Of a DNA stretch of 50,489 nt, positions 16,121-50,489 are shown in pieces. The position numbers and the translations under genes are program-made. Positions within the stretch are counted from its first letter, which is position 1; each line of letters starts with the position of its first letter. Source of the stretch: an uncultured delta proteobacterium (GTDB taxonomy: Bacteria; Myxococcota_A; Polyangia; Polyangiales; Polyangiaceae); the NCBI GenBank assembly GCA_903906315.1, contig CAIVJW010000373.1:1-50489 (forward strand). Direction: 5' to 3'. The notes under the pieces were generated by a model, which was given only the letters and a program-made list of their open reading frames with translations, ran no database searches and was not told the DNA's origin.

Positions 16121-19100
16121 CTACGGTGCCCAGGTGCCGAACGTGGTGAACGAGTTGCCGTGCGGCCAGATGCGCCCCGCGCCGCCCGAGCAGCCCGCCG
16201 CGTAGCCGAAGAAGGCGTCGCCGGAGACCGGGGGGGTGGTCGGGCCGTAGCCCGGCCCAGCGCAATCGGCGCCGTCGAGGTAGCACTTCGCCCCGTAGCA
16301 AGCCTGGCAGGCCGCCTGCGCTTGCACGCCGTTCGTCCCGACGAGCGGGGCGCCCGGATCGCAGTACTCGACCTTGCCCGACGCGCACACGCCGCCGCCC
16401 TTGCCGACGATCGCGTGACAGTAGCCGTGGTACTGCAGCGCGTTCTTCATGATGACCGCGCCGTCACCTGCCCAGAAGTCGGCGCGGAGCGTGGACGACG
16501 GCGGGTAGAAGTTCAGCGTGGCGTAAGCCCTGCCGTTCTTCACGCCGCGCACGATGAGCGGCGCCCCGCTGCCCCACAGCGCTACCGCGACGCCGCCGTT
16601 GATGAGCGCGCCGTTGCTGCGGAACGCCGAGGTGGCCGTCAGCTTGCCGACCCCGGTGACGAGGGGGTTCGCCGGCTCGAGGATCTTGAGCGCGAGCGTC
16701 TCGGCGGGCTGATCCTGCCCGCCGGTCGCGATGAGGTGGTAGTTGCCCGTCGCCCAGCGCCCCGAGAGCACGATCGAGGCGTTGGCGAACGTCGCAACGA
16801 CGACGCGGCCGCCCCCGTCGAAGTAGTCGGCGACGTTGTTGCCGAGCGCGACGGTGTCGAGGAAGCCCGCGTCGGAATACACGAGGATCGCCTGGTACGC
16901 CTGCAGCTGCGCCAGCGTCGGCGTCGCGAGCTTGGCATTCCAGATGTCGACCTTCTGGAAAGCCGCCGTCGCGACGAGCTTCGACTGCACGTCGTTGTTC
17001 CACGTGTCCGTGCTCGGCGCGCCCACGACGAGGACGCTCTCCTTGCACGAGCCGTTGTAGCAAACGCCCGCCGCGCAGACGTTGCCGCAGGCGCCGCAGT
17101 TCTTCGGGTCGTTGTTGGCGTTGACCTCGCAGCCGTTCACCGCGTTGGCGTCGCAATTCAGGTAGGGCGCGTTGCAGGTGGCGACGCCGCACACCGACTT
17201 CGTGCAGCCCGGCGTCCCGTTGGCCACCTTCCCGCAGGCGTTGCCGCACGCGCCGCAGTTGGCCACGTCGTCGGTCGTGCTCGTCTCGCAGCCGTCGGCG
17301 TAGCCGTTCTTGCAGTCGGCGAAGCCGATGGCGCACGCGGCGATGCCGCAGGCGGAGTTCGCGCAGCCCGGCTTGCCGTTGGCGACCGCGCACTTGTTCG
17401 CGCACGCGCCGCAGTTGGTCACGTCGACCGCCGAGTCGACCTCGCAGCCGTTCGCGAGGTTGTTGTCGCAGTTCCTGAACGCGCCCGTGCACGCGCCGAT
17501 GCCGCACGCGCCGCCCGCGCACGCCGCCGTGCCGTTGGCGACGACCGGGCACGCGAGGCCGCACTTGCCGCAGTTCTTCACGTCGACTTGCGAGTTCGAC
17601 TCGCAGCCGTTCGCGACCACCGCGTCGCAGTTCTGGTACGGCGCCGCGCACGACGCGACGCTGCACGTCGAGGCCGCGCAGCCCGGCGCCCCGTTCGGCA
17701 CCGCCAGGCACACCTTGCCGCAGGTGCCGCAGTTCTTCGGGTCGAGCGAGACGTTGACCTCGCAGCCGTTCGCCGCGTTGGCGTCGCAGTCCGTCTGCGG
17801 CGCCACGCACAGCCCGACGCCGCACACGCCCGCGTTGCACGCCGGCGCGCCGCCCGCCACGTTCGGGCAGACGTTGCCGCACACCTTGCAGTTCTTCACG
17901 TCGGACTGCGTGTTCACCTCGCAGCCGTTGCTCAGCGCCTTGTCGCAATCCGAGTAGCCCGCGTTGCACGAACCGATGCCGCACGCGCCCGCGGTGCACG
18001 CCGCCGCCCCGTTCGCCACCGCCGGGCAGACCTTGCCGCACACGCCGCAGTTCGACAGGTCCTTCGACCCGTCGATCTCGCAGCCGTCATCGGGCTTGCC
18101 GTCGCAGTCGAAGTAGCCCGCGCTGCACGACCCGATGCCGCAGGTGCCGCCGTTGCACGCCGGAGCGCCGTTCGCGACCGCGCCGCACACCTTGCCGCAC
18201 GCGCCGCAGTTGCCGACGTCCTTCGTCCCGTCGACCTCGCAGCCGTTGTCGAACTTGCCGTCGCAGTCGATGAAGCCCGGGTTGCACGTCACCGCGCACT
18301 GCCCCGAGCCGCACGACGCCGTGCCGTTCGCGACGTTGCCGCATTCCTTGCCGCACGCGCCGCAGTTCTTCACATCCTTCAGCGTCGTGATCTCGCAGCC
18401 GTCGCCCGCGGTCTTGTTGCAGTCCGCGAACCCGTCGTTGCAGCTCGCGATCGCGCACGTGCCGGCGTCGCACGCGGGCAGACCGTTCGCGATCGAGCAG
18501 ACCTTCCCGCACGTCGCGCAGTTGTTCGGGTCGATCTTGGTGTCGACCTCGCAGCCGTTCGCGTCCGACTTGTCGCAGTCCGCGTACCCCGCGTCGCACG
18601 CCTTGAGCACGCACGACGCCGACTCGCAGGCCACGGTGCCGTTCTTCGTCGTGCACGCCGAGCCGCACGCCGAGCAGTTGCTCACGTCCGTCTTCGGATC
18701 GACGCAACTGCCCGTGCAGCACAGGCCGTCGACCGCGCATGCGTTCGCGCACGTCCCGCAGTTCTTCGTGTCGGCCGCCGTGTCGATGCACACGTGGTCG
18801 CAGCACGCGAACTGCCCCGCGCCGCCGCCGTCGTCGGCGGCCTTGCAGTCCGCGTCCTTCGCGCAGCCGCTATTGCACGAGTACAAGCCGTTCAGCTCGA
18901 CGCAGTACTTGCCGTCGCCGCAGTTGTCGTTGTCCGGCAGACACGGCACGCACTTGCCCGATCCGACCTCGCACCGCGAGTTCTTCGGGTCCGGGCAGTC
19001 GCCGTCTGCCTGGCAGAGCGAGCATTGCCCCGTGCCCGTGTCGCAGAGGCCCGCGTCGCCGCAGATCGGCTTCGTCTTCGAGCAGCCCGGCACGCACGCG

Positions 19101-19465
19101 CCGCTCTTGCACACCTCACCGTCCGGGCACTGCAGCTCGTCGAGGCACTCGACGCACTTGCGCGTCGCCTGGTTGCAATGGGGCGTGTCGCCGCTGCAGT
19201 CCTTGTCGGCGTCGCAGCCGGAGGTCGTCGTCGTGCCGCCGGTGCCGCTGCCCCCGGTGCCGTTGCCTCCGATGCCCGTGCCGCCGTTGCCGCCGCTGCC
19301 GGTGCTGCCGCCACTGCCGGTGCTACCGCCGCCGCCCGTCGCGGTGGTCGTCCCGCCCCCCGCAGTGGTCGTGCTGCCCGTGGTGCTTGGCGTCGATTCG
19401 CCACAGCCCGCCGCTGCCAGGAGAAGGGCGAGCGCGAGACTCGCCTTCAAGTGAGGTCGTTTCAT
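16121..19465 (-). CDS. giant Cys-rich repeat lipoprotein with Rossmann-like C-terminal module (copy 1), 1,114 aa
   Basis: The ATG at 19465 starts MKRPHLKASLALALLLAAAG with lipobox Cys 21, after a GGGGAGC ribosome site. Order of parts: Thr/Gly linker (30-85). A Cys-rich region with CDADKDCSGDTPHCNQATRK and CVECLDELQCPDGEVCKSGA (85-290). Ten repeats of about 48 residues (290-800) built on 'C..GY.DCD....NGCEVD...D..NCGACGKVC..VANG...C..G.C'. A module from about 802 to 1,015 (VLVVGAPSTDTWNNDVQSKL, ILVYSDAGFLDTVALGNNVA, DYFDGGGRVVVATFAN). A Cys-containing tail. The module's alternating beta-alpha text suggests a ThuA/glutamine-amidotransferase-like fold, but the elbow SDAGF has no nucleophilic Cys. 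Probably a disulfide-rich outer-surface protein for adhesion or binding. Function is not established. Confidence 0.82.
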   Translation of the reverse strand: MKRPHLKASLALALLLAAAGCGESTPSTTGSTTTAGGGTTTATGGGGSTGSGGSTGSGGNGGTGIGGNGTGGSGTGGTTTTSGCDADKDCSGDTPHCNQATRKCVECLDELQCPDGEVCKSGACVPGCSKTKPICGDAGLCDTGTGQCSLCQADGDCPDPKNSRCEVGSGKCVPCLPDNDNCGDGKYCVELNGLYSCNSGCAKDADCKAADDGGGAGQFACCDHVCIDTAADTKNCGTCANACAVDGLCCTGSCVDPKTDVSNCSACGSACTTKNGTVACESASCVLKACDAGYADCDKSDANGCEVDTKIDPNNCATCGKVCSIANGLPACDAGTCAIASCNDGFADCNKTAGDGCEITTLKDVKNCGACGKECGNVANGTASCGSGQCAVTCNPGFIDCDGKFDNGCEVDGTKDVGNCGACGKVCGAVANGAPACNGGTCGIGSCSAGYFDCDGKPDDGCEIDGSKDLSNCGVCGKVCPAVANGAAACTAGACGIGSCNAGYSDCDKALSNGCEVNTQSDVKNCKVCGNVCPNVAGGAPACNAGVCGVGLCVAPQTDCDANAANGCEVNVSLDPKNCGTCGKVCLAVPNGAPGCAASTCSVASCAAPYQNCDAVVANGCESNSQVDVKNCGKCGLACPVVANGTAACAGGACGIGACTGAFRNCDNNLANGCEVDSAVDVTNCGACANKCAVANGKPGCANSACGIAACAIGFADCKNGYADGCETSTTDDVANCGACGNACGKVANGTPGCTKSVCGVATCNAPYLNCDANAVNGCEVNANNDPKNCGACGNVCAAGVCYNGSCKESVLVVGAPSTDTWNNDVQSKLVATAAFQKVDIWNAKLATPTLAQLQAYQAILVYSDAGFLDTVALGNNVADYFDGGGRVVVATFANASIVLSGRWATGNYHLIATGGQDQPAETLALKILEPANPLVTGVGKLTATSAFRSNGALINGGVAVALWGSGAPLIVRGVKNGRAYATLNFYPPSSTLRADFWAGDGAVIMKNALQYHGYCHAIVGKGGGVCASGKVEYCDPGAPLVGTNGVQAQAACQACYGAKCYLDGADCAGPGYGPTTPPVSGDAFFGYAAGCSGGAGRIWPHGNSFTTFGTWAP

Positions 19466-19710
19466 GAAGAGCTCCCCGGCCGATCGTGCATGACCTGGCC
19501 AGCCGCCATGTTCGGCCAGTTCCGGCCGTGAGGGGAGACAATTCGGGCGGAATTCCCGTGATCTGAGCGCACCGGGCCAGCACGGCGAACGTCAAGCGAC
19601 GGCGACGGCGACGCGCGCCACAAGCGATGCGGGGAGCGACGTCGTCGACGACGCCCCCACGCGATGAGGAAGGCTGGGCAGGGGAGGGAGGGGGCGCGCA
19701 CCGCGTGGCG

Positions 19711-19730
19711 CGGGGCCGGTAGCGGCCCCG
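19711..19730. terminator. hairpin CGGGGCCG-GTAG-CGGCCCCG
   Basis: Perfect 8-bp stem with a 4-base loop, 79 bases downstream of the stop of copy 2 (leftward). It is the second of three near-identical hairpins here. It could be a back-up terminator or an element copied along with the gene duplication. Confidence 0.4.
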
Positions 19731-19784
19731 TCACGGTCGACGGGGCGCGCCCGGAGATCAGCGCTCCGAGGAGAGCGCGGGTGT

Positions 19785-19802
19785 GGGGCCGCTCACGGCC
19801 CC
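19785..19802. terminator. hairpin GGGGCCG-CTCA-CGGCCCC just after the stop of copy 2
   Basis: Same stem as at 16096-16113, with only the loop changed, at the same distance (7 bases) from the stop codon of the paralogue. Its conservation between copies supports a role in transcript ending or RNA stability. There is no T-run. Confidence 0.5.
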
Positions 19803-19809
19803 ATCGCGC

Positions 19810-22800
19810 CTACGGCGCCCAGGTGCCGTACGTCGTGTTCGAGGAGCAGATCGACCAGATGCGACCCGCGCCGCCCGAGCAGCCCGCGGCGTACCCGAAG
19901 TACGCGTCGCCGCAGACAAACTGGCCGGCCGCCTTCGGACCGTAGGCCACGCCGGCGCAGTCCGCGTTCTCGAGGAAGCAAGCCGCGCCGTAGCACGCCT
20001 CGCAAGCGCCCTTCGCCTGGGGTCCGCTCGTGTTCACGATCGGGGCCGCCGGGTCGCAGTACTCGACCTTGCCGGACGGGCAGACGCCGCCGCTCTTGCC
20101 CACGATCGAGTGGCAGTAGCCGTGGTACTGGAGCGCGTTCTTCATGATGGTCCCGCCGTCGCCGGCCCAGAAGTCGACGCGAACGGTGGACGACGGCGGG
20201 TAGAAGTTCAGCGCCGCGTAGGCGACGCCGTTCTTGACGCCGCGAATGATGAGCGGGGCGCCGCTGCCCCACTGCGCGACGGCGACGCCGCCGTTGATGA
20301 GGGCGCCCGAGCTGCGGTACGCCGCCGTCGCCGTGAGCTTGGCCACGCCGGCCGCGAGCGGGTTGTTCGGCTCGAGGATCTTGAGCGCGCCAGCCTCGGC
20401 CGGCTGCACCTGACCGCCGGTGGCGATGAGGTGGTAGTTGCCCGACGCCCAGCGGCCCGCGACCGGGGCCGAGGCGTTGGCGAACGTGGCGATGACGACG
20501 CGGCCGCCCGCGTCGAAGTAATCGGCGAGGTTGTTGCCGAGCGTCGCGGCATCCTGGAAGCCCGCGTCCGAGTAGACGAGGACGGCCTGGTAGCCCTTGA
20601 GGGCCGCGAGCGTGGGCGTCGCGACCTTCGCGTTGAAGATGTCGACCTTCTGGAAGGCGGCCGTCGCGACGAGCTTCGACTGCACGTCGTTGTTCCACGT
20701 GTCGGTCGCCGGAGCGCCGACGACGAGGATGCTCTCCTTGCACGCCCCGTTGGTGCAGACACCGCTAGCGCAGGCGTTACCGCAAGCGCCGCAGTTCTTC
20801 GGGTCGCTGTTGCTGTTGGCCTCGCAGCCGTTGGCCGCGTTGTTGTCGCAGTTCAGGAAGCCCGCGTTGCAGGTCGCGACGCCGCAAGCCGAGGCCGTGC
20901 AGCCCGGCGTGCCGTTGGCCACCGCGCCGCAGACCTTGCCGCACGCGCCGCAGTTGTTGACGTCGCCCGTCGTGGCCGTCTCGCAGCCGTCGGCGTAGCC
21001 GTTCTTGCAGTCGGCGAAGCCCGCGCTGCAGGCGGCGACGCCGCAGGTCGAGTTCGTGCAGCCCGGGGTGCCGTTCGCGACCGCGCACTTGTTGTTGCAA
21101 GCGCCGCAGTTGTTGATGTCGGCCGAGACCGGGGTCTCGCAGCCGTCGGCGTAGCCGTTCTTGCAGTCCTTGAAGCCGGCGTTGCACGAGCCGATGCCGC
21201 AGGCGCCGGCCGCGCAGGCCACCGCGCCGTTGGCGACGGCCGGACAGACGTTGCCGCACTTGCCGCAGCTCTTCACGTCGGTGCCACCGTTGACCTCGCA
21301 GCCGTTCACGAGGTTCAGGTCGCAGTTCAGGAACGCGCCCGTGCAGGCGGAGATGTTGCAGGCGCTGTTCGCGCAGCCCGGCGTGCTGTTCGGGTACGAC
21401 GGGCACACGGTGCCGCACTTGCCGCAGTTCTTCGCGTCGATCGAGACGTTGACCTCGCAGCCGTTGCCCGCGTTGGCGTCGCAGTCGGTCTGCGGGGCGA
21501 CGCACGCGCCGATACCGCACGCGCCCGCGTTGCACGCCGGCGCGCCGCCGGGGACGCCGGGGCAGACGTTGCCGCAGGCGTTGCAGTTCTTGACGTCGGA
21601 CAGGGTGTTGATCTCGCAGCCGTTGGCCGCGCTCTTGTCGCAGTCGGAGAAGCCCGCGCTGCACGATCCGACGCCGCAAACGCCGGCCGCGCAGGCCGCG
21701 GCGCCGTTCGCGACCGCCGGGCAGAGCTTGCCGCACGCGCCGCAGTTGTTGAGATCCTTCGAGCCGTCGACCTCGCAGCCGTTGGCCGCGCTGCCGTCGC
21801 AATCGAAGAAGCCGACGTTGCACGCGCCGACGCCGCAGGCGCCCGCCGCGCAGGCCGCCGTGCCGTTGGCGACCGCGCCGCAGACCTTGCCGCACGCGCC
21901 GCAGTTGACCGCGTCCTTCGAGCCGTCGACCTCGCAGCCGTTGGCGAACGCGCCGTCGCAGTCGAAGAAGCCAGGGTTGCACGTCACCGCGCAGACGCCC
22001 GAGCCGCAGGAGGTCGTGCCGTTGGCCACGACGCCGCAATCCTTGCCGCACGCGCCGCAGTTCTTGGCGTCGCTCAGCGTCGTGATCTCGCAGCCGTTGG
22101 CGGCGCTCTTGTCACAATCCGCGAAGCCGTCGTTGCAGCTCGAGATGCTGCACGCGCCGGCGTCGCAGCCCGCGATGCCGTTCGCGATCGAGCACGCCTT
22201 GGCGCACGCCGAGCAGTTGTTCGGGTCGGTCTTCGTGTCGATCTCGCAGCCGTTCGCGACCGAGTTGTCGCAGTCGGCGAAGCCCGCGTCGCAGCCCTTC
22301 AGCACGCAGGCCGAGGCCTCGCAGGCAACGGTCGCGTTCGTGGCCGAGCAGGCCTTGCCGCACGCGCTGCAGTTCTTCGAGTCGACGGCCGGGTCGACGC
22401 ACGCGCCGGTGCAGCAGAGGCCGCCCACCGCGCACGCGGTACCGCACGTGCCGCAGTTCTTGGTGTCGGCGAGCGTGTCGATGCAGACGTGGTCGCAGCA
22501 CGCGAGCTGCTCGGCGCCGCCGCCGTCGACGTCGGCCTTGCAGTCGGAGTCCTTCGCGCAGCCGTTGTTGCACGAGTACACGCCGTTGAGCTCGACGCAG
22601 TACTTGCCGTCGCCGCAGTTGTCGGCAACCGGGAGGCACGGAACGCACTTGCCCGAGCCGACCTCGCAGCGCGGGTTGACCGCGTCGGGGCAGTCCGAGT
22701 CCTGCGTGCAGACCGAGCACTGGCCGGTGGCGACGTCGCAGGTGCCCGCGTCGCCGCAGATCGGCTTCGTCTTCGAGCAGCCGGGCTCGCACGCGCCAGC

Positions 22801-25165: not shown

Positions 25166-25209
25166 CGCGGGGCGCGGTGCCCGGCGGCCCGAGGTGGGTC
25201 CGCGAAGAC

Positions 25210-25458: not shown

Positions 25459-25465
25459 GCGCGGG

Positions 25466-28400
25466 CTAGCTGCCGAGCCCGAGGCGGGCCCGGGCCTCGG
25501 CGTACGCATCGCTGACCGCGAACACCACGAGCTCGCGCGCCTCGGTGTTGCGGCCGATCCACGTCACGCGCTCCTTGCCGGAGGCGGGAGGCGCGTTGGC
25601 GTGGCCGCCGGCGGAGGCGATGCCGACGAGCGCGAGGTTCGGGTCGCCGACGGCGAGCAGCGCGGCCCGGTCCCCCCAGCCGTTGACGACCGTGTTGAGG
25701 GTCGAGGCGCGATTTCCGATGGTGCCGATGACGTCGGAGGCGAGGGTCGCGAGCTGCGGGTCGATCGACCCGGGCAAGGCCTTGGTGAGCTTCGACTGCC
25801 AGTCGCCGAGCTTGGCCGCGTCGACGCCCTGCGGCGCGAAGGTCGGGACCAGCGTGCGCAGGTACGCCGCGACGAGGGGCCAGAGGTCGATCGGCGCCGT
25901 GCGCGAGAGCACCGCAGCGTTGGCCTGGAGCACCTTCATGGCGCGATGAACCAGGAAGTCGCGGACGTCGGCGCGCGTCGAGGTCACGAGCGCCTGGCCG
26001 AGCACGAGCGTGGGCGGGTGCGCGGACGCGGCCAGGCAGACCGCGCCGAGCACGCCGGAGACCTGCACGTGGACTGCGAAGATGCCGTACGCGGCGGCGA
26101 TCTCGCGGACGCGCTCGCCGAGCTCGGCGTGAGCGAGGGGGAGCGGGACGGCGCGGATCGACCCGAGATCGTAGGGCACCGCGGCGTCGAGCAGCGGGCC
26201 GGTGGACCGCAGCAGATCGCGGAACGCCGGCGTGAGGACGTCGGGGGCGAGGAGGTCGTCGAGGGACGGCTCGCCCGCGCCGAGCCCTGCGCCCTCGGGC
26301 GGGACCGAGTCGGTGCCATCGAGGGCCGCGACGATCGAGTGCGCGATGTTCGCGGCGTCGGGGCGGTTGCGGAGCGTCGCAACCGTCGCGAGGGTGCCGA
26401 ACAAGTACGGCTCGAAGCGCCCGGTGGAGAGGGCGCGCCGGGCGTCGGCGACCGCTCGGTCGAGCAGGAGGTGCCCGGGCGCCGTCTGGCCGGTCCGCTG
26501 GTAGAACTGGGCGAGGCCGAGCAGCGCGGCGTCGTCCTTCGGCCAGGTCTTGCGCGCGGAGAGCAGCGTGGACTCGGCCTTCTTCGAGTCGCCGGACGCC
26601 TCGTGGATGCGCGCGAGATCGACGGTCCGCTGGCACTTGGCCTCGGGCGCCTCCGCCTCGTTGACGAGCGCGGTCTGCTGCTCGAGGGCCGCGCGCGTGT
26701 CGCCGGTGCGCTGGTAGAGGGCGACGAGCCGCTCGCGGGCCGCGAGGTCGGCGGGCGCCCGCTTGAGGATCTCCTGGTACGCGAGCTCGGCGCGCTCCGG
26801 GTTGGGCAGGTGGTCGTCGTAGAGCTCGCCGAGGCGGAGGTAGACGGCGGCCTGTCGCGCCGGCTCGGGGACCAGCCTCGCGAGCCGGATGAGCGCCTGC
26901 TCGGCGCCCGTCCAGTCGCCTTCCGCGCTGCAGAGGCCAGCGAACGCCTCGAGGGCGTCGACGTGGTCGGGGCTCTCCTCGAGCGCCCGCGCGAGCGCGC
27001 GCTTGGCGGTGCCCACGTCGCCGACCTCGGCGAGGGTGCGGCCGCGCAAGACCTCCAGCTCGACGCGCTCGCTCGGGTCGGTGACGCTGTCGAGGCGTCG
27101 CTCGAGGAGCGTCGCGAGCTCCGCGCGCGCGCCCTCCGCGAGGTAGAGCGTGCGCAGGCGCTCGAAGGCGTCTTCGTACGCGGGACGAAGCGACGTCACC
27201 CGCTCGAGAGCGGCCCGAGCGCGGCCCGCGTCCTTGACGACGTCGCCCCAAAGAACGGCCGCGCGGTAGATCTCGCGGACGCTCTCCTCCGGAGCCGCGC
27301 TGACGTCGGCCGAGGCCTCGAAGGCCTCCGCGGCGGCGGCGTGATCGCCGAGCTCGACGAGCACTTCGGCGCGCTCGAGCTGGACCAGGACGTGCTGAGG
27401 AGCAAGCTCGACGGCACGGCCCAGCAGGGCGTTCGCGCGCGGGAGCTCGCCGGCCTGCCTCGCGGCCTGGGCGGCGCGGAGCAGCAGGGTCGCGCCCTCG
27501 AGCGGTCGATCGACACGCGTCGAGATCTCCTCGTCCGCCACGGACGCGAGCCTCGCGTCGCCATGGGCGCGCGCGTGAGCCGCGACCTGACGGAGCACCC
27601 AGAGCGCGCGAGGCTCGTGCTTGTACGCGACCTCGAGCGGCTCGCGCATCTCCTCCCAACCGAGCGCGCGGAGGCGCAGGCGAGCGGAGACGATCGCGTG
27701 CGCCGTCGCCTCCGGCCCGTCGAGGGCCTTGGCGATCGCGAGCGCGATGGGCTCGATCTCGCCTTCACGCCCGGCGGCCGCGAGGGCGCTCGCGACGCGG
27801 CGGAGGGTCGGGAGGTGGTCGGGCACCTCCTCGAGGATCGTGCGCCGCCAGAGCAGACCGCTCGCCGGGTCGTCGCGGCCGACCTCGTCGAGGTCGGCGA
27901 GGCGCTCGTAGACCTCGAGGCGCTCCTCGGCCGTCGCGAGCGCGCGAGCCTTCGGGAGCAGCTCGTCGACGAGCTCGCTCGCGCCGTGCCCGGCGAGGGC
28001 GGCGCGGTAGGCGAGGATCGGGGCGAGCGCGGTGTCGCCCGCTGCGACCGCCTGACGTGCGAGCACCGCGGCGCGCGCCATGTCACCGGACCGCTCGAGC
28101 TCCAGCGCAGCCTCGAGCGCAAGACGGGCGGCGTCGGGACCGACGGCCTCGGCGGCGCGCTGCACGCGCCACTCGGCTCGATCGGGCGGCGGATCGGCGG
28201 AGAGCCGCTCGTAGAGCTCACGCAGGCCCACGTCGGAGGGCCGCGCCGGGAGCGCCTGTTCCAGGAGGCTTGCCGCGGATGAGCCAGCCTCGTCGGCGAG
28301 CAGCAGCGCCTCGCGAACGAGATCGAGCGCCTGCTCGCCAGCGTCTTCGCTCGTCTCGCGGCGCAGGCGGAGCCACTCGAGGACCCGCTCGCGATCGCCC

Positions 28401-31400
28401 CGAGCGCGGGCGAGCCGCTCGCCGAAGTGCGCGGCGAAAGGCAGTCGGAGGTCGATCTCGGCCGCGGAGCGGAACAGGCGCTCGGCCTCGCCGGCTGGCG
28501 GGATCTCGGTGTCGACATCCACGTCGACGTCGGGGTTCGCGTCCGCGAGGCGGATCGCAGCCTCGACGAGCAGCAGCGCAGCGCGCGCGCCGCCGCCGAC
28601 CGAGTCGGCGAGCTCGACGAGCGCGCTCGCGGCCTCTTCGCGGCTCTGGAACGAAGCGCGCGCGCGAACCGCGCCTTCGTGGCCGGCGTCGAGCGCGCAG
28701 GCGCGTTCGTAGTCGGACGCCGCCCGGTCGGGATTGCCGCCGAGCTCCGCCACGAGCGCACCCGCGAGGGCGCGATCGCGCTCGGCGTGGTGCGCCGGGC
28801 CGGCGACGTTCACGTCGCCCCAGCTCGACAGGGCGCGGGCGACCTCGCCAACCGCCCCCGCCTCGACCTCGAGCTCGAGCGCGAGCGCGCGGGCGACCCC
28901 GGTGTCGGGCGCGGCGGCGCCGTACGCGCGCACCGCCGCAGCCGCGCGGCCGCGGTGCGCGCGATCGTTGACCTCGTCGGACGGGCTGCCGATTGCGGGG
29001 CCAGCCGCGAGCGCGCGGCCGAGGCGCACCGCCGTCGAAGCGCGGGCGCTGCCGAGCGAGAGCATGACGCGGCCCGGGTCGGACGGTGCCGAGAGCGCGC
29101 TCGTCGCGGCGACGACGAGCGGGGCGAGCTGGGCGTCGCGGACCGTGTCGTCGACGAAGGCATCGAGCTCCTCGCGCGTCGCGCCACCGAGGGCGCCGAT
29201 CGCGATGCGATCCGCCGCGCTGAACGCGGAGGCGGGCGCCTGATCGAGCGCGGCACGGGTCGCTTCCGCGTCTCCGAGCTCGATCGCGCGGGCGGCGACG
29301 GCGCGCGCCGCGAGCGGCCCGTGCGAGCCGGCAACGACCGCGCGGAGAGACGCGAGCGAGCGCTCCCGGGTTTCCGGGCGCGGCGCAGCGAGCACGCCGG
29401 CGAGCCACCCAGCGCCGCCGCCGAGGCCGCGAGCCTTGGCGAGCGACTCGACCCACCCGACGGCAGCGGACACGTCCCCGGCGCCGAGCGCGGCGCGCGC
29501 TCGAAGGAGGCGCTCGTACGCCGTCGACGCGCCGTCACGCGGCCTCGCCCAGCCCGTCTTGCTGGCGAGCTCGACCGGGGTCGCGCGGAGCAGCGCGACC
29601 TCGGCGAACGCCCCCGCGAGAGGCGCAAGGCCCGGTGCGTCGGGCACTCGGACGCGCGCGAGCGCCGCGCCGACGGCGCCCTCCCCCTGGAGGTCGGCGT
29701 CGGCAATCGCGTCGCAGAAGCGCTGAACCACGGGGCGCGGGTCGCCAGGCAGCGCGCGCGCGGCGGCGTCGAGGCGCTTTCCCGAACCCTCGCGGTCATC
29801 GAGCTTCTGGCGAAGAATCTCGGCGGCGACCAGGGAGGCGTGCGCCCGCGCCTCGGGGGTCGGCGCGAGCCGTGCCTCGACATCGAGCACCTCGACCGCG
29901 GCGTTCCACTCGCCGTCGCGCTGATACAGCCCGCGGACCTGCCGCTGCGCGAGCGGTGAGCTCGGGGTCAGGTCGCGCGCCTCGCCGGCGAGCTCCAGGG
30001 CGAGCGGCTCCTCCCCCGCGAGGGCCGCGAGCTCCGACGCGACGAGCAAGATCCGTGAACGGGCCGTCGCGTCCTCGATCGCGCCGGCCTCGGCGCGGAG
30101 CCAGGTCACGCGCGAAAGCCAACCCTCGCGCGTGCTGCCGACCCCCTTCGCGCTCGCGAGCGAATCGGGCACGGCACGAAGCGCGGGCGGGCTCGGCGCC
30201 GCCACCGCGGCGAGGGCAGCGCCAAATACGCGAGCCTCGACCTCGACGACGGGGCTCGGCGCGGGCTCGGGCGCCGACGCAGGCGGCGGCGGCGGCGACT
30301 CGGGGGGCAGGTCGATCTCGAGCGACGGGGCCACGTCGAGCTCGGGCGCTGGCGAAACGAGGGCCTCGGAGGCTTCCCCCGACGACGAATCTTCCAGCGG
30401 CAGAGGGGCCAGCGCGGGTTCGGGCGTGGACGTGGACGCGGGCGCGGGGGTCTCGGTCGCCGAACGCGGGGCGGCTCCGAGGGTTGCGAAGCTGGGCGCG
30501 ACGGAGGCGTCCGGCTCGGATCCCGGGAGGTCGTCGGCGCCCTCCCAGATCTCGGTCGCGGCTTCACCTTGCTCGTCGAGGTCGAAGATCTCCGAGTCGA
30601 CCGCCGGCTCGGGCAGCGCGAGAACCGGCGACTCCTCGCGGAGGACCTCGGTCGGCGCGGGCGCGGCCGCCAACGGGACCGACGACGGCTCCAGCGGCGA
30701 GATCGGCGCGGGCGTGACCGCCGACGGCGGCGACGGAAACGGGACGGACGACCCGGGCAACGGAGGGAGCGTCACGGCAGAGGACGTGCGCGACGGCGGC
30801 GTCCGGTCGGACGCGGGATCCTCGGACAACGGCGGATCGAGATCGCCCTCGAGGCCCGAATCGAGGTCGGGCGAGCGCGTCGCCTCGGTCAGGATGCGCG
30901 CCATGTCGGCGTCGAGGAGGGCGGTCCGGGGTTCCGCGAAGTCGTCGTCGTCGCGAGGAACGCTGAACTCGTGCTCGCTCGCGACCGCGGCGCTGAGGGC
31001 CGGCGCAGGGATCGTGATGGTCGCCGGAGCACGGGGCGGGGGATCGTCCGCGGAAGGAGGCTCCGGGTCCTCGCGAGGGATCGGTCGCGACTTCGGGGCC
31101 CCCTGGCGCGGGGGACCGGCCGGACGCGGGAGCTCGAATGCGGACGCGCCGCCCGCGAGCGGCGTCGGCGCAGGGGGCGGCAGCACGGGCCGCGGCGCGC
31201 CAGGGCGCACGGCGACCGCGGCGGGGGGCTCGGTGACGTCGGCGAACAGCGAGTCGAGCAGCGCGTCGCTCTCGTCGTCCGACGGGAGCACGTCCACGAG
31301 CTTCGGTCCGCCGCCGAGGCGGATCGACGCGGAGGGGCGCTTCTGCGCGACGGCCACGTTCTCCGCCGGCCTGTTGATCTCGGGCCGCCCGGCTGCGGGA

Positions 31401-36273: not shown

Positions 36274-36430
36274 ACCGGGGCCCCGGCTGCTCTCTCTGGC
36301 ATCATTGACCGCGCGGAGAGTAGCCAATCCGAAGGTTTGGAGTAAAGCGTGCCGGTGCGGCGCACCGGGCCTGGCGCGCGCGGAGTTTCGATCGCCCGCC
36401 ACCGCGGCTCTCCCATCTCGCGCGCTTCTC

Positions 36431-36459
36431 TTGACGACGCGCGCACGCGGGCGGACGCT
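36431..36459 (+). promoter_or_regulatory. promoter-like TTGACG, 17 bases, GACGCT
   Basis: TTGACG at 36431-36436 is the best -35 match in the area, with GACGCT at 36454-36459 as -10 (AnnnT conserved). The GTG of the FHA gene follows 13 bases later. The leftward TPR operon starts about 160 bases away in the opposite direction. Confidence 0.4.
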
Positions 36460-36472
36460 GCCTCGAAGCCTC

Positions 36473-38836: not shown

Positions 38837-38919
38837 GCCTGGGTCTCCATTCCGATGAGGGTGAGCGAGCGGGCGCCTCGCCCGCCGCATGCGCGCCCCG
38901 GCGCGCATCCGCGAGAGCA

Positions 38920-43569: not shown

Positions 43570-43615
43570 ACGCGCCGCGACGCAGCGAGCGGGGCGGCGC
43601 ACGCGGGGGGGCCTC

Positions 43616-44131: not shown

Positions 44132-44149
44132 GCGAGCAGGGTACCGACC

Positions 44150-44178
44150 TGGACGGCGCTCGGGCCGACAGGTAGGGT
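44150..44178 (+). promoter_or_regulatory. promoter of the Ser/Thr kinase: TGGACG, 17 bases, TAGGGT
   Basis: TGGACG at 44150-44155 and TAGGGT at 44173-44178 with a 17-base spacer. Unlike the leaderless cases, this leaves a leader of about 40 bases with the ribosome site GAGGAGG before the GTG at 44226. Confidence 0.5.
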
Positions 44179-44225
44179 GAACGCCGGGCGTCGCTTCCCG
44201 TGGGGGAGCGACCGAGGAGGCGCAC

Positions 44226-45923
<1,698 letters not shown>

Positions 45924-45979
45924 CCGCGCGCGGCCAGCCGACGAGCGCGCTCCGACTGGTATGGCCAGCCGCCTGCGCG

Positions 45980-45985
45980 TATCGT
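45980..45985 (+). promoter_or_regulatory. -10-like TATCGT nine bases before ATG
   Basis: TATCGT then CACCCACCC then the ATG at 45995. It could give the secreted repeat protein its own transcript with almost no leader. No clear -35. Confidence 0.35.
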
Positions 45986-45994
45986 CACCCACCC

Positions 45995-47014
45995 ATGCAT
46001 CGACGACGAACGTCCTCGATCCTCCCCGTGACGACGATGTTCGCGATGGCGCTGCTGGCGACCACGCCGGCGTGGGCGCAGCCGTCGCCGGCCGCAGCCA
46101 CCCGAGCTGCCGGCGACGCCAAGCAGAGCGCGAGGACGCTCGGCAAGGAAGGCCAGGATGCGCTCGACCGCGGCGAGTACGCGGTCGCCGCCGAGAAATT
46201 CGCCGCGGCCGACCAGAGCTTCCATGCGCCGACGTTGGTGCTCGGGCAGGCCCGCGCGCTCGTCGGCCTCGGCAAGCTCGTGGCCGCGCAGGAGGCCTAC
46301 GACCGAGTGATGCGCGAGGGCGCGCCCCCGGGCTCGACACCGGCGTTCGTGCAGGCGGTCGATGCTGCGCGCACCGAGGGGGCCGCGCTGTCCGCGCGCC
46401 TCCCCAGGGTCGTCATCGACGTCCTCGGCCCGCGCGCGCCGGAGGTGCACCTCGACGGTGTGCCCCTCGCGACGCCGACGCTGGGCGCGCCGCGGCTCGT
46501 CGACCCCGGCACGCACCTCGTGCGCGCCGCGGCCGCGGGCTTCACCCCCGTCGAGCAGAGCTTCACCGCCGTCGAGCGCACCGCGAGCCGCGTCGAGCTG
46601 CGGCTGCTCCCGACCGCGGGCAACGCGACCGCCGCCCCCGCGCCGGTCGCACCGCGGCGGACGACGTCTCCGCTGAAGCCCCTCGGCGGCACCGCGCTCG
46701 GCCTGGGCATCCTCGGGCTCGTCGCGGGCGGCATCACGGGCGGCCTCGCCGTCAGCAAGCACTCCCAGCTGAAGGACGCCTGCCCAGGCGACCGCTGCCC
46801 GACCAACGTGTCCTCGGTGAAGGACGCGCTCGACGCCTACCACACGTTCGGCACCCTCTCGACCGTCGGGTTCGTCGTCGGCGGCCTGCTCACGGCCGGC
46901 GGCGTGACGCTGCTCGCGCTCGCGCCCTCCTCCGCGCCGGCGGACACGCGAACCAAGGCCAGCGTCGTGCCCGTGATCACGCTCGGCGGCGTCGGCGCCG
47001 TGGGGAGGTTCTGA
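45995..47014 (+). CDS. secreted TPR-like/PEGA-like protein with membrane segments, 339 aa
   Basis: The ATG at 45995 gives a signal peptide (SILPVTTMFAMALLATTPAW, cleavage after AWA). Residues 40-125 are TPR-like helices (GQDALDRGEYAVAAEKFAAA, GQARALVGLGKLVAAQEAYD). Then comes a small beta domain with VDPGTHLVRAAAAGFTPVEQ, the PEGA-type 'pG.h.v.a...Gy.p' pattern. Two hydrophobic spans close the protein (LGLGILGLVAGGITGGLAVS, LSTVGFVVGGLLTAGGVTLL). This combination is a frequent neighbour of myxobacterial Ser/Thr kinases, and here it follows one by 71 bases. The last base of its stop is the first of the next start. Confidence 0.8.
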   Translation: MHRRRTSSILPVTTMFAMALLATTPAWAQPSPAAATRAAGDAKQSARTLGKEGQDALDRGEYAVAAEKFAAADQSFHAPTLVLGQARALVGLGKLVAAQEAYDRVMREGAPPGSTPAFVQAVDAARTEGAALSARLPRVVIDVLGPRAPEVHLDGVPLATPTLGAPRLVDPGTHLVRAAAAGFTPVEQSFTAVERTASRVELRLLPTAGNATAAPAPVAPRRTTSPLKPLGGTALGLGILGLVAGGITGGLAVSKHSQLKDACPGDRCPTNVSSVKDALDAYHTFGTLSTVGFVVGGLLTAGGVTLLALAPSSAPADTRTKASVVPVITLGGVGAVGRF

Positions 47015-47373
47015 TGCGAAGGCCCCGCTCTCGCGCCGCGACGCTCCCGTTCCTGGCCCTGTCTCTTGCGGCGTGCACCCAGATCCTCGGCGACTTCACC
47101 GAGGGGTCGTCGACCTCGACCTCGGGGTCGAACGGCGCCTCGCAGGCCTGCCAGGACTGCCTGACCAGCAGCGCGTCCGACGGCTGCAAGGCGCAGTACG
47201 ATCAGTGCATCAGCAACAATCAGGCATGCAGCGACATCTGGAACTGCATCAACGACTGCAACAACGCCGGGGCGTGCGTGCAGGCCTGCCCGGGTCAGTT
47301 CCCGGACGGCCAGAGCGACTTCAACGACGTCATCTCGTGCTTCACCGAGGACTGCAAGTCCGCCTGCAACTGA
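47014..47373 (+). CDS. Cys-rich lipoprotein, 119 aa
   Basis: The ATG at 47014 shares one base with the previous stop (TGATG). MRRPRSRAATLPFLALSLAA leads to lipobox Cys 21. After a Ser/Thr/Gly linker the body has evenly spaced Cys (QACQDCLTSSASDGCKAQYD, SDIWNCINDCNNAGACVQAC, VISCFTEDCKSACN). That is the layout of small disulfide-bonded myxobacterial lipoproteins, and no enzymatic motif is seen. Co-translation with the TPR-like protein suggests they work together at the envelope. Confidence 0.82.
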   Translation: MRRPRSRAATLPFLALSLAACTQILGDFTEGSSTSTSGSNGASQACQDCLTSSASDGCKAQYDQCISNNQACSDIWNCINDCNNAGACVQACPGQFPDGQSDFNDVISCFTEDCKSACN

Positions 47374-47400
47374 GGGCCGCCCACTCCGCGCGGGCGGCCC
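47374..47400. terminator. two-way terminator hairpin GGGCCGCCC/GGGCGGCCC
   Basis: A perfect 9-bp stem with a 9-base loop begins directly after the stop at 47371-47373 and ends 12 bases before the stop of the convergent gene. It is the strongest hairpin found here. No T-run, as usual in this DNA. Confidence 0.6.
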
Positions 47401-47412
47401 GCCGGGGGCGCG

Positions 47413-48885
47413 TCAGTATCGCTTGCAGACCGTGATGCGGGTGTAGCTGCCCGACTCGACGCCGTCCCAGAATTTGCAGTTCGTGTCCCCGGCGCACCCG
47501 AGGCACGGCCCCGTGTACCGCGTGCTCTGACCATCCCAGAAGTGCCACGCGTTGTCGCCGCCGCCGCAGCTCTGCGGATCCCCACAGCACGACGGGCCGT
47601 TGCCGCAATGGGTGTTCGTCCCCTCGACCGCGCGGTACTTCGCGATGACGTCACCGCACCAGCCTGCGTTCATCCAGTCCGAGTAGCTGACCTCCTGCCA
47701 GCCACCGCACTTGTCGCAGAAGGTCGGGCCGTCGGTGCCGGCGCGGCAGGTGAGCTTGATGCAGTGCCCCGCGTCGGTCTTGCAGCCGGTCGGGCCCCAG
47801 CAGTCGTTACCGCAGCAGTCGGCGTCGTTCCCGCAGTTCGCCGGGCAGCATCCGTCGCCGTCGATGCACTGGCTGACCATCGACTTCGGGTTACCGCAGG
47901 TGCCTCCGGCGCAGGTCGTCCCGACCATGCACTTGTCGGCGGCCGCGCACGCTTTGCCCTCGTTCGCGGGCACGCCGCCGCTGCAAATGCCGGCCGCGCA
48001 GGTCTCGCCGGCGAGGCACATGTTGCCGCTCTGGCATTTCGCGCCCTCGTTGCCGGCCACCGCGACGCACTTCTTCAGGCCCTCGTCGCACGTGCCGATC
48101 TGGCAGACGTCGCCGGGCGCCGCGCACGTGTTCGGCTTGCCGACGCAAGCGCCCGCCGCGCACGTGTCGCTCACGGTGCAGTACAGGCCGTCGTCGCAAG
48201 CGGAGCCGTCGGCCTGCGGCTTCTTCACGCAGCCGAGCTTGGCGTCGCAGACGCCGACGGCGCACGTGTCGTCGAAAAACGAGCAGTCCGCCTGCGTCTG
48301 CTGGACGCATTTGCCGCCCTGGCAGGCCGCGGTCTGCGTGCACGGGTCGCCGTCGCTGCAGGCGTTGCCGTCGTTGCCCGGCACGAGGCTGCAAGCCTTC
48401 TTGGCCTCGTCGCAGACGCCGAGGTGGCAGCCGTCCGCGCCGGGGCAGACCTTGGGAGTGCCTCCGCCGCAGACGCCGTTCGAGCAGGCCTCGTTGTCGG
48501 TGCAGAAGGTGCCGTCGTCGCACGCGCCGAACTCGTTGGCCGGCTGCCGGACGCAGCCGCCGTTCACGCACGCGCCCTGGTTGCACGCGTCGGACAGGGA
48601 CACGCAGTCGACCACCGTCGCGCAAGGCGCGCCGATCGCCGCGTCGGTGCCCGCGTCGACGACCGCGCCGCCGCCCGTGCCGGTGCCGGTGCCGCCCGCG
48701 CCGCCCTGGGCCTTGCCGCCCGCGCCGCCCGCGCCGCCGTGCCCGCCCGCAGCGTGCGTGGTCGTCGGGTCGTCGCCGCTGCCGCCGCTGCCGTCATCGA
48801 AGAGCTTGGAGTTGCCGACCGCGCACGACGCGGCCGAGGCCACGGCGACGAGGAGCGCACAGAGAGGGAGAAGCTCGGTCTTCAC
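47413..48885 (-). CDS. Cys-rich lipoprotein with dicluster repeats and unique C-terminus, 490 aa
   Basis: The GTG at 48885 (GAGGAA upstream) starts MKTELLPLCALLVAVASAAS with lipobox Cys 21. After a Gly/Ala linker, residues 85-355 are Cys-rich repeats (CVSLSDACNQGACVNGGCVR, CDDGTFCTDNEACSNGVCGG, CDDGLYCTVSDTCAAGACVG), each about 25-45 residues, with several disulfide-type pairs. The last ~130 residues are different: KCGGWQEVSYSDWMNAGWCG, HCGNGPSCCGDPQSCGGGDN, WHFWDGQSTRYTGPCLGCAG, then CKFWDGVESGSYTRITVCKR. I recognise no named family for this end. The Cys repeats closely match the neighbour on its left-end side (48,951 onward), whose C-terminus is unrelated. Confidence 0.8.
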   Translation of the reverse strand: MKTELLPLCALLVAVASAASCAVGNSKLFDDGSGGSGDDPTTTHAAGGHGGAGGAGGKAQGGAGGTGTGTGGGAVVDAGTDAAIGAPCATVVDCVSLSDACNQGACVNGGCVRQPANEFGACDDGTFCTDNEACSNGVCGGGTPKVCPGADGCHLGVCDEAKKACSLVPGNDGNACSDGDPCTQTAACQGGKCVQQTQADCSFFDDTCAVGVCDAKLGCVKKPQADGSACDDGLYCTVSDTCAAGACVGKPNTCAAPGDVCQIGTCDEGLKKCVAVAGNEGAKCQSGNMCLAGETCAAGICSGGVPANEGKACAAADKCMVGTTCAGGTCGNPKSMVSQCIDGDGCCPANCGNDADCCGNDCWGPTGCKTDAGHCIKLTCRAGTDGPTFCDKCGGWQEVSYSDWMNAGWCGDVIAKYRAVEGTNTHCGNGPSCCGDPQSCGGGDNAWHFWDGQSTRYTGPCLGCAGDTNCKFWDGVESGSYTRITVCKRY

Positions 48886-48950
48886 GGTTCCTCGTCAGTC
48901 GGGCTGGAAGGCGGTGCGCTGCCGGCTCGCGCCGCGATCGAGCCGGAAGG

Positions 48951-50489
48951 TCACTTGTAGAGCAACGCGTTGCGGAGGATCGCCGCACCGTCACCCGACC
49001 AGAAGTCGTTGCGCGAGTCGAAAGACGGCGGGTAGAGGTTCACGTCGGCGCGGTTGCGGCCCTTCACGACGCCGCGCACGATGAGCGGCGCGCCGCTCTT
49101 CCAGCTGGCCACCACGACGCCTCCGTTGATGACGCCGCCGTTGCTGCGAAACGCCGCGGTCGCGTTCAGCGCTCCGACGCCCTTGACGAGCGGGCTCTGC
49201 GGCTCGGCGATCACGCCCAGCGAGTCGGAGGGCTGCTCCTGGTTGCCGGGCTGGATGAGGAGGTAGCCCTTGCTCACGTCGCCGAAGGCGCCCGTCACGG
49301 GGACGCTCGCGTTGGCGAACGGGGCGACGACGACGCGGCCGCCGCCGTCGAAGTACGTGGCGAGGTTGTTGCCGAGGGTCGCCGCGTCGGAGAAGCCCGC
49401 GTCGGAGAAGACGAGGACGGCCCCGTACTTCTGCAGCTCCGCGACGGTCGGCGTCTTGGACTTGCCGTTGATGGCGTCGACGGAGAGGAACGCGCCGAGC
49501 CCGGCGAGCTTCTTCACGACCTCGGCGAGCCAGAGGTCGTCGGAGGGCGCGCCAATGACGCCGATGGCCGGCTTGCAGTCGTTGTCGGTCGAGCCGGGGA
49601 CGTCGCAATTGGCCGGGCAGCAGCCGTCGTCGGCGATGCACTGCGTGATCACGGACTGCGCGTTCTGGCAGACGCCCTTCGAGCACGTCGTTCCGAGCAG
49701 GCAGAGGTCGGCGGCCGGGCACGCCTTGCCCTCGTTCGCCGCGACGCCGCCGCCGCACTTGCCCGCAGCGCACGTCTCGCCGGACAGGCACGGATTGCCG
49801 CCGACGCACTTCGCGCCGTCGTTGCCGGGCACGGCGACGCAGGTCTTCTGCCCCTCGTCGCACGAGCCGACCATGCAGACGTCGCCGGGCGCCGCGCACG
49901 TATTCGGCTGGCCCTTGCACGCGCCCGCCGCGCACTTGTCGCTCACCGTGCAGTACAGGCCGTCGTCGCACGCGGAGCCGTCGGCCTGCGCCTTCTTCAC
50001 GCAGCCGAGCTTGGCGTCGCAGGCGCCGACGGCGCACGTGTCGTCGAGGAACGAGCAGTCCACCTGCGTCTGCTGCACGCATTGACCGCCCTGGCAGGCC
50101 GCCATCTGCGTGCACGGATCGCCGTCGTCGCAGAAGGCGCCATCGTTGCCGGGCACGACCGAGCAGGCCTTCTTGGCCTCGTCGCACACGCCGACCTGGC
50201 ACCCGTCCGCAGCGGGGCAGATCCGCGGGACGCCGCCGCCGCAGACGCCGTTCTGGCAGGACTCGCTGTCGGTGCAGAAGAGGCCGTCGTCGCAGGCCCC
50301 GAACTCGTTGGCGGGCTGCTTGACGCACGCGCCGTCGACGCAGGTGCCCTGGTTGCACGCGTCGGACAGGCCGGCGCAGTCCACGGCGCCGCCGCAGCTC
50401 GGCGGCGGGCCGTCGCTGGCCGCGTCGACGGGCGCGTCGACCGCGGCGTCGTCCGCGCCCGCGTCGCTCGCCGTGGCCGCGCCGCCCGA
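48951..50489 (-). CDS. Cys-rich repeat protein with Rossmann-like C-terminal module, N-terminus beyond the window
   Basis: The frame is open to the right edge, so start and signal peptide are not visible. At the edge the text is an Ala/Asp/Pro linker (SDAGADDAAVDAPVDAASDG) leading to CGGAVDCAGLSDACNQGTCV. Cys repeats match the 490-aa neighbour almost unit by unit (CDDGLFCTDSESCQNGVCGG, CDDGLYCTVSDKCAAGACKG). The last ~225 residues are instead the module of the giant lipoproteins: IGVIGAPSDDLWLAEVVKKL, AVLVFSDAGFSDAATLGNNL, TYFDGGGRVVVAPFAN, GGVINGGVVVASWKSGAPLI and DFWSGDGAAILRNALLYK at the end. It lacks the Cys tail found in the two giants. Presumably a lipoprotein like its relatives. Confidence 0.8.
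   Translation of the reverse strand, partial: SGGAATASDAGADDAAVDAPVDAASDGPPPSCGGAVDCAGLSDACNQGTCVDGACVKQPANEFGACDDGLFCTDSESCQNGVCGGGVPRICPAADGCQVGVCDEAKKACSVVPGNDGAFCDDGDPCTQMAACQGGQCVQQTQVDCSFLDDTCAVGACDAKLGCVKKAQADGSACDDGLYCTVSDKCAAGACKGQPNTCAAPGDVCMVGSCDEGQKTCVAVPGNDGAKCVGGNPCLSGETCAAGKCGGGVAANEGKACPAADLCLLGTTCSKGVCQNAQSVITQCIADDGCCPANCDVPGSTDNDCKPAIGVIGAPSDDLWLAEVVKKLAGLGAFLSVDAINGKSKTPTVAELQKYGAVLVFSDAGFSDAATLGNNLATYFDGGGRVVVAPFANASVPVTGAFGDVSKGYLLIQPGNQEQPSDSLGVIAEPQSPLVKGVGALNATAAFRSNGGVINGGVVVASWKSGAPLIVRGVVKGRNRADVNLYPPSFDSRNDFWSGDGAAILRNALLYK

What the first reader, a model, noticed from the sequence alone, without database searches (positions are those of the whole stretch)
16420..49650. 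One Rossmann-like C-terminal module attached to two different Cys-rich N-terminal types: module shuffling in surface lipoproteins
Seen: the ~210-residue module (V.GAP..D.W...V..KL..L.., VYSDAGF.D...LGNN.A.YFDGGGRVVV..FANAS, INGGV.VA.W.SGAPLI.RG, DFW.GDGA.I..NAL.Y) ends the proteins at 16,121, 19,810 and 48,951. The 48,951 protein instead shares its Cys repeats with the 47,413 protein, which ends in an unrelated domain. Inference: a recombining family with swappable ends. The fold resembles ThuA/amidotransferase-type Rossmann domains, but no nucleophilic Cys is at the expected turn, so it may be a binding module. I know of no described function.
Basis: partly seen in the sequence, partly recalled or inferred. 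Interest (0 to 1): 0.68.

Follow-up and report, generated by a model that had tools for sequence, protein, structure and literature searches.

The report
Interchangeable ThuA-like head on Cys-rich stalks
This bacterial genome encodes predicted lipid-anchored proteins built from cysteine-rich stalks with interchangeable tips, and the tip examined here is a sugar-enzyme-like fold that seems to have lost its catalytic residues and probably binds a sugar polymer.

Summary
The ~205-residue module is real: 57-82% identical across three window proteins, and the genome holds only these three close copies. One correction: it ends only the 48,951 protein; in the other two a ~98-residue Cys-rich tail follows. 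AlphaFold2 models it at pLDDT 97.4; the best solved matches are ThuA-like/GATase1-like proteins (Z 17.5-14.3). No Cys-His-Glu triad is conserved. The same fold is a proven carbohydrate-binding domain in Agd3 (CBM87) and in a Bacteroides levan-binding lipoprotein.

Shuffling is supported. The 48,951 gene is a DNA-level mosaic: its stalk matches genes on four other contigs, its head matches the other two window copies. Six proteins of this genome share one stalk but differ in their heads. Relatives attach the module to Ig-like ASH, EGF, DUF4215, FG-GAP, subtilase, PKD, LamG, PEP-CTERM and T9SS-tail proteins in several phyla.

Best reading: a non-catalytic ThuA-like carbohydrate-binding head on a swappable stalk. 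Architecture and fold (as a model) are shown; ligand binding and surface exposure are inferred. New variant of a known kind.

The parts
16121..19465 (-). P0001, 1114 aa: signal peptide ending in Cys, Gly/Thr-rich linker, A-type Cys stalk, module copy 1, Cys-rich tail
   Evidence: Stig1 PF04885 33.1 bits over its 24.1 cut-off
17042..19216 (-). A-type Cys stalk of P0001 (NCGxCGxxC repeats)
   Evidence: 53 matches to part of it in the genome, itself included
16418..17041 (-). ThuA-like/GATase1-like module, copy 1 (208 aa)
16124..16417 (-). Cys-rich tail domain of P0001, also found after the B stalk on contig C337 and three times in one ORF on C286
19810..23187 (-). P0002, about 1125 aa, tandem paralogue of P0001 (816/1124 identical)
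20113..20736 (-). Module, copy 2 (208 aa)
19813..20112 (-). Cys-rich tail domain of P0002
48951..50489 (-). P0003, at least 512 aa, N-terminus cut at contig edge: B-type Cys stalk plus module copy 3
49575..50396 (-). B-type Cys stalk of P0003, ending in the DGCCPxxC linker
48954..49568 (-). Module, copy 3 (205 aa), C-terminal head of P0003
47413..48885 (-). P0004, 490 aa: signal peptide ending in Cys, B-type stalk, unrelated Cys-rich head
47815..48624 (-). B-type Cys stalk of P0004
47416..47814 (-). Orphan Cys-rich head of P0004; its last 115 residues have no second copy in the genome

Best explanation
The module is an extracellular, non-catalytic member of the ThuA-like branch of the class I glutamine amidotransferase-like fold, used as an exchangeable ligand-binding head. 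A Cys-terminated signal peptide sends the protein out and probably anchors it by a lipid; a disulfide-rich stalk then holds the head away from the membrane. Recombination within the genome joins the same stalk to different heads and the same head to different stalks. The head most likely binds a polysaccharide or other glycan through the cleft at the C-terminal edge of its central sheet, where catalytic GATases have their triad, with conserved aromatic and polar residues (candidates Y101, W190, R95, D193 in copy-1 numbering). SHOWN: the module, its fold as a predicted model, the lack of a conserved triad, the mosaic genes, the range of partners. INFERRED: lipid anchoring, surface exposure, disulfide stalk, position of the pocket, glycan binding.
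For: Model pLDDT 97.4, pTM 0.93. VIA-align: 2gk3 Z 17.5 (2.7 A, 192 aligned), ThuA-like 1t0b Z 17.1 (2.8 A, 192), GATase1-like 3rht Z 16.9 (2.7 A, 193). Two planctomycete relatives exceed Pfam's ThuA cut-off (43.3 and 44.8 bits against 33.4). In 85 rows no Cys column above 13% and no Glu column above 21%, but Y101 0.98, R95 0.91, W190 0.88, D193 0.83 by weight. Two carbohydrate-binding domains of this fold: levan-binding lipoprotein 8aa2_G (Z 13.2, 3.2 A, 189) and Agd3 CBM87 6nwz (Z 13.1, 3.4 A, 185) (PMC7618045; PMC7229062). Six proteins with one stalk and different heads; DNA mosaic; identity drop at the boundary. Extracellular partners such as LamG, EGF, PKD, FG-GAP, PEP-CTERM and T9SS tail.
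Against: No ligand data. The conserved residues were not placed on coordinates, which the session does not give, so the pocket is a guess. R95 is Ala in copy 3. The triad was judged from alignment columns, not from superposed structures. This fold also serves non-binding roles, and ThuA-like proteins may be enzymes. Related genomes carry stalk B with a divergent head of the same fold, so part of the pairing may be old rather than swapped. The lipobox-like ends are not in the strict consensus.
Confidence: 0.55

Rival explanations
1. The module is an active enzyme of the ThuA-like kind, for example acting on sugars, that uses residues other than the GATase triad.
For: Several polar side chains are nearly fixed across phyla: N200 0.95, R95 0.91, D193 0.83, with S182 in 84% and a His at position 125 in 78% of rows. 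Some relatives are fused to subtilase domains (L071, L120), which shows that enzymes occur in such proteins.
Against: The amidotransferase triad is absent; the 78% His is Asn or Ser in all three window copies and R95 is Ala in copy 3. The settings are those of binding modules: repeats, tandem triplets, Cys stalks.
Confidence: 0.2
2. The module is a structural or protein-protein interaction domain that docks or spaces partners, as GATase-like domains do in GH42 beta-galactosidases or in IFT52, with no ligand of its own.
For: GH42 enzymes, the IFT52 N-terminal domain (5fmr, Z 13.4) and, in Foldseek, the OST48-type subunits 6s7t_G and 6c26_B are among the matches. Tandem triplets in planctomycete proteins look like a scaffold.
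Against: The nearest matches are free-standing ThuA-like proteins. The module stands at the exposed C-terminal tip in P0003 and in 18 of 109 proteins ends within 10 residues of the C-terminus or of the contig, a place for a binder rather than a spacer.
Confidence: 0.2
3. The stalk-head pairing of P0003 was inherited rather than swapped: stalk B carried a ThuA-like head from early on, and the heads merely diverged; the different heads of the other stalk-B proteins arose by loss and replacement long ago.
For: Five genomes of a related genus carry stalk B with a divergent GATase-like head. The AU test rejects copy 3 with those heads as one clade only marginally (p 0.034) and does not reject copy 3 with four other CCP-linker proteins (p 0.054).
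Against: Copy 3 is 57-59% identical to copies 1 and 2 on A stalks and only remotely similar to those heads (18% in hhalign). Copy 3 lies in a clade of A-stalk modules (96/83). The DNA mosaic is plain.
Confidence: 0.2

Closest known systems
CBM87 domain of the exopolysaccharide deacetylase Agd3 (PDB 6nwz 147-362)
   Same: GATase1-like fold without the Cys-His-Glu triad, in an extracellular multidomain protein; VIA Z 13.1, 3.4 A, 185 aligned; proven polysaccharide binding (PMC7229062, passages)
   Different: N-terminal to an esterase, no Cys stalk; sequence kinship not tested here; its three binding residues could not be mapped onto the module
C-terminal domain of the levan-binding surface lipoprotein of Bacteroides (PDB 8aa2_G 182-436)
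   Same: ThuA-like fold as C-terminal head of a lipid-anchored glycan-binding protein; VIA Z 13.2, 3.2 A, 189 aligned; binds levan through W297 and W359 (PMC7618045, passages)
   Different: Ig-like domains instead of a Cys stalk, part of a SusCD uptake machine, no head exchange reported in the passages seen
ThuA family (PF06283) and ThuA-like structures 1t0b, 4jqs, 4e5v
   Same: Fold over nearly the whole module (Z 14.3-17.1); planctomycete relatives pass the Pfam cut-off
   Different: Window modules have no Pfam match at E up to 1 and lack the His at 125 that 78% of relatives have
GIFT domains (IFT52, OST48/Wbp1)
   Same: Structural matches (5fmr Z 13.4, 3.2 A, 188 aligned; 6s7t_G and 6c26_B); sugar binding proposed (PMC7226087, passage)
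   Different: No Pfam match of the window copies to the GIFT model at E up to 1; intracellular or ER proteins
TraA kin-recognition receptor of myxobacteria
   Same: Recognition head (PA14, lectin-like) shown on a Cys-rich stalk (PMC3325183 and PMC6372800, passages)
   Different: Other head fold, other Cys repeat family, head at the N-terminus with a C-terminal sorting tag

Membership tests
Class I glutamine amidotransferase (catalytic) | Conserved Cys-His-Glu triad | tested here: not met
   Best Cys column 13% and best Glu column 21% of 85 rows; the one His column (78%) is Asn/Ser in the window copies. Judged from columns, not from superposed coordinates
Class I GATase-like fold, ThuA-like branch | Fold over the whole domain | tested here: met
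   Model pLDDT 97.4; 1t0b Z 17.1, 2.8 A, 192 aligned; 3rht Z 16.9, 2.7 A, 193 aligned
ThuA (Pfam PF06283) | Score above Pfam's gathering cut-off | tested here: not met
   No match of the window proteins at E up to 1; of 47 class members 8 match at E up to 0.1; relatives L099 and L123 pass with 43.3 and 44.8 bits against 33.4
CBM87 | Sequence kinship with the Agd3 module | not tested
   Only fold similarity was seen (6nwz Z 13.1)
Carbohydrate-binding module | Measured binding to a carbohydrate | not testable with these tools
   Needs an assay
GIFT domain (PF23355) | Match to the Pfam model | tested here: not met
   Window proteins: none at E up to 1; in L120 a weak match (20.1 bits, cut-off 27.2) lies outside the module
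STIG1-like (PF04885) | Score above Pfam's gathering cut-off | tested here: met
   Stalks of P0001 (33.1) and P0002 (34.9) against 24.1; P0003 and P0004 have no match
MXAN_6577-like Cys-rich protein (NF041328) | Score above NCBI's cut-off of 100 bits | tested here: not met
   47.1 and 62 bits, six stretches each, in P0001 and P0002
TraA-type Cys repeat (TIGR04201) | Match to the NCBIfam model | tested here: inconclusive
   Not among matches at E up to 1 for the four proteins; I did not check that this model is in the release searched
Lipoprotein | Signal peptide with lipobox Cys | tested here: inconclusive
   By eye, hydrophobic N-termini end in Cys in P0001, P0002 and P0004 but not in the strict consensus; P0003 is cut at the contig edge; no predictor was run

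The most novel reading that the evidence does not exclude
The genome runs a head-exchange system for surface recognition: a few Cys-rich, lipid-anchored stalks are joined by recombination to a pool of exchangeable heads (two or three ThuA-like subfamilies, LamG, fibrinogen-like, VWA, propeller and orphan Cys heads), giving a repertoire of glycan or prey receptors in which heads change faster than stalks. The ThuA-like head is a new carbohydrate-binding family spread over several bacterial phyla and at least one archaeal MAG.
Probability: 0.35. Interest if true: 0.72.

Novelty: new variant of a known kind. Interest (0 to 1): 0.52.

Why it matters
No Pfam or NCBIfam model names the module in the window proteins, yet relatives occur in Myxococcota, Planctomycetota, Bacteroidota and further lineages. 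Recognising it as a triad-less ThuA-like head gives a testable function to many large secreted proteins. The one-stalk, many-heads pattern within a single genome is a clear case of modular diversification of exported proteins, and it offers defined candidates for how relatives of predatory bacteria may recognise polysaccharides or other cells.

Tried and rejected
Considered and rejected: (a) a catalytic GATase, because no triad is conserved; (b) the GIFT family by sequence, as the window copies have no match at E up to 1; (c) the 47,413 head as a decayed module (hhalign probability 1.6%); (d) chance Cys-rich similarity as the whole signal: A and B stalks do align locally in part (94 identities in 376 columns), but the modules hold few Cys, match end to end, and the model is confident.

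Led nowhere: the tail domain folded badly with four sequences (pLDDT 36.7) and has no PDB sequence match at E up to 1, so its fold stays unknown. PDB sequence searches with module profiles gave weak rows only (6 rows at E up to 10, GH42 enzymes and ThuA-like 4jqs among them; 2 rows at E 0.33 and 0.5). The viral structure library gave 2 matches at E up to 0.001, neither named; nothing was built on them. Of the ten paper searches, none listed a paper that I recognised from title or abstract as describing this module or stalk-head exchange in these proteins; they cover open-licence PubMed Central papers only and are no proof of absence.

Rows left out before counts: nine duplicate loci before the 109-protein table; 13 of the 95 module stretches before alignment A4 (82 plus 3 window rows); modules spanning under about 140 residues, and tandem-triplet loci other than five, before the 116-row tree ('quick' method). 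Partner classes come from regular expressions and one home-made ASH profile, not Pfam, so they are rough; several proteins are cut by contig ends. L051 and L127, A-type on their N side, were left as 'other' or dropped for length in the trees. The label test was not planned before the first tree was seen, so its AU p-values are weaker than they look.
Full report
NAMES. P0001 is the 16,121 protein, P0002 the 19,810, P0003 the 48,951 and P0004 the 47,413 protein; module copies 1, 2 and 3 lie in P0001, P0002 and P0003.

WHAT WAS CHECKED. The modules lie at window 16418-17041, 20113-20736 and 48954-49568, minus strand, and are 170/208, 119/202 and 117/205 identical in pairs. The genome search finds these three and no other match at E up to 0.001. 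P0001 and P0002 are tandem paralogues (816/1124 identical); P0003 and P0004 are neighbours that share only the stalk.

WHAT IT IS. No Pfam model matches the module in the window proteins at E up to 1, and NCBIfam gives only a chance-level row in P0003 (13.5 bits against a cut-off of 257). An alignment of 85 module rows (A4) gave an AlphaFold2 model with pLDDT 97.4 and pTM 0.93. The best VIA-align rows are STM3548 (2gk3, Z 17.5, 2.7 A, 192 aligned), ThuA-like 1t0b (17.1, 2.8 A, 192), GATase1-like 3rht (16.9, 2.7 A, 193), 3soz (16.8, 2.8 A, 192), and ThuA-like 4e5v (14.8, 3.3 A, 201) and 4jqs (14.3, 3.1 A, 190). Foldseek agrees (4jqs TM 0.67 by query length). Two planctomycete relatives exceed Pfam's ThuA cut-off. 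The module is thus ThuA-like by fold and by distant homology.

IS IT AN ENZYME? In 85 rows no Cys column exceeds 13% and no Glu column 21%; a His at position 125 reaches 78%, but the window copies have Asn or Ser there. Strongly conserved side chains include Y101 (0.98 by weight), N200 (0.95), D75 (0.95), R95 (0.91), W190 (0.88) and D193 (0.83); R95 is Ala in copy 3. The amidotransferase triad is absent; an unknown activity is not excluded.

WHAT THE FOLD DOES ELSEWHERE. Two structural matches are proven carbohydrate binders. The C-terminal domain of the levan-binding lipoprotein (8aa2_G 182-436; Z 13.2, 3.2 A, 189 aligned) was likened by its authors to 1t0b and binds levan through W297 and W359 (PMC7618045, passages). 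Agd3 141-364 (6nwz 147-362; [quoted passage not shown] GIFT domains, also among the matches, were proposed to bind sugar (PMC7226087, passage). These are precedents, not proof. The same fold core also occurs in a dimethylformamidase (PMC7686228, passage), a reminder that it can be catalytic by other means.

WHO CARRIES IT. In a sample of the class, 31 of 289 genomes have a match at E up to 0.001. One scan of named genome contigs gave 46 loci, mostly MAGs labelled Myxococcales, Planctomycetota/Phycisphaerales and Bacteroidetes, with one or a few MAGs of Nitrospirae, Zixibacteria, Verrucomicrobia, Armatimonadetes, Sumerlaeota, WOR-3, Deltaproteobacteria, a Thiotrichaceae, an Oxalobacteraceae and a Euryarchaeote. 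MAG labels can be wrong. Pfam partners in 20 scanned proteins include Stig1, ASH/HYDIN Ig domains, FG-GAP, subtilase with TSP3, EGF, DUF4215, PKD, LamG, RCC1, PEP-CTERM and a T9SS-type tail. In a rough table of 109 proteins, 17 have two or more A-type Cys motifs before the module, 27 have ASH domains after it, 10 have DUF4215-like repeats before it and 19 hold three or more modules in a row.

ONE STALK, MANY HEADS. The B stalk of P0003 and P0004 occurs whole in six proteins of this genome; the five others are 58-76% identical to that of P0003. Their ends differ: the ThuA-like module (P0003); an orphan Cys head (P0004; its last 115 residues have no second copy); two propeller-like ends (C365 by eye; C251 with a Kelch_1 score of 22 bits over its 20.1 cut-off); the same tail domain that follows the module in P0001 and P0002 (C337); and another Cys head (C35). 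Partial matches to the stalk exist elsewhere in the genome (18 matches in all at E up to 1e-15). The A stalk is more widespread (53 matches to part of it). I scanned 10 proteins from the 18 non-window loci fetched for it, some of which overlap: Pfam finds LamG, Kelch, two VWA, two Fibrinogen_C (one at 21.7 bits, just under its cut-off of 22) and DUF5050; L160 looks ThuA-like (hhalign 84.9%, E 6.4e-6).

MOSAIC AT DNA LEVEL. Used as a DNA query, window 47000-50489 splits: the stalk side of P0003 matches C365 (77%), C251 (74%), C337 (70%) and C35 (77 and 71%), while its head side matches the modules of P0001 and P0002 (74 and 72%). Between P0003 and P0004, nucleotide identity is 0.72-0.96 along the stalk and 0.43-0.60 after the boundary. 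On the 52-row module tree copy 3 sits inside a clade of A-stalk modules (96/83). The labels need 8 changes there against a least possible 5, and 12 against 6 on the 116-row tree.

WHAT SPEAKS AGAINST A SIMPLE SWAP STORY. Five genomes of a related genus carry stalk B with a remote GATase-like head (hhalign 97.5%, E 5.8e-12), and L197 may carry a third kind (57%, E 1.1e-4). So the pairing of stalk B with this fold may be old, and copy 3 may reflect replacement of one ThuA-like head by another. The AU test disfavours copy 3 with two of those heads as one clade only at p 0.034, and does not reject copy 3 with four other CCP-linker proteins (p 0.054). Labels are also strongly clustered on both trees: exchange is repeated but not rampant.

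HOW IT PROBABLY WORKS. Shown: genes, fold at model level, lack of a triad, partner range, mosaic. Inferred: lipid anchor, disulfide stalk, exposure, glycan binding. The closest working analogue in the wider group is TraA, a lectin-like PA14 recognition domain on a Cys-rich stalk (PMC3325183 and PMC6372800, passages), with opposite polarity and another repeat family.

CONTEXT. Neighbouring window genes are a chorismate-binding enzyme, a DnaJ-like protein, a cysteinyl-tRNA synthetase-like protein, TPR proteins and a protein kinase. They say nothing clear about function.

Noticed in passing
window 16124-16417 and 19813-20112; L151 (C337); L155 (C286): The Cys-rich tail after the module is a separate domain: it follows the B stalk on C337 and occurs three times in a 2186-aa ORF on C286. 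Its fold could not be predicted.
   Followed up: partly
L099, L102, L105, L106, L110, L115, L118, L119, L121, L123, L125: Planctomycete MAGs carry proteins of three or four modules in a row, often in two or three neighbouring genes.
   Followed up: no
L160 (C277 of the window's genome); L177-L181; L197: Further ThuA/GATase-like heads of divergent kinds sit on A or B stalks (hhalign E 6.4e-6, 5.8e-12 and 1.1e-4).
   Followed up: partly
L173 and L175 (window's genome): Fibrinogen-like C-terminal domains on STIG1-like Cys stalks in a bacterial genome (21.7 and 27 bits against a cut-off of 22).
   Followed up: no
L047, L049, L061, L068-L070, L077, L078 and others: A recurrent architecture of about 1,000-1,100 residues: one module followed by about seven ASH/HYDIN-like Ig repeats.
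   Followed up: no
window 25466-36624: Long overlapping minus-strand open frames (2416 and 1714 aa) with weak TPR matches; the gene boundaries here are unclear.
   Followed up: no
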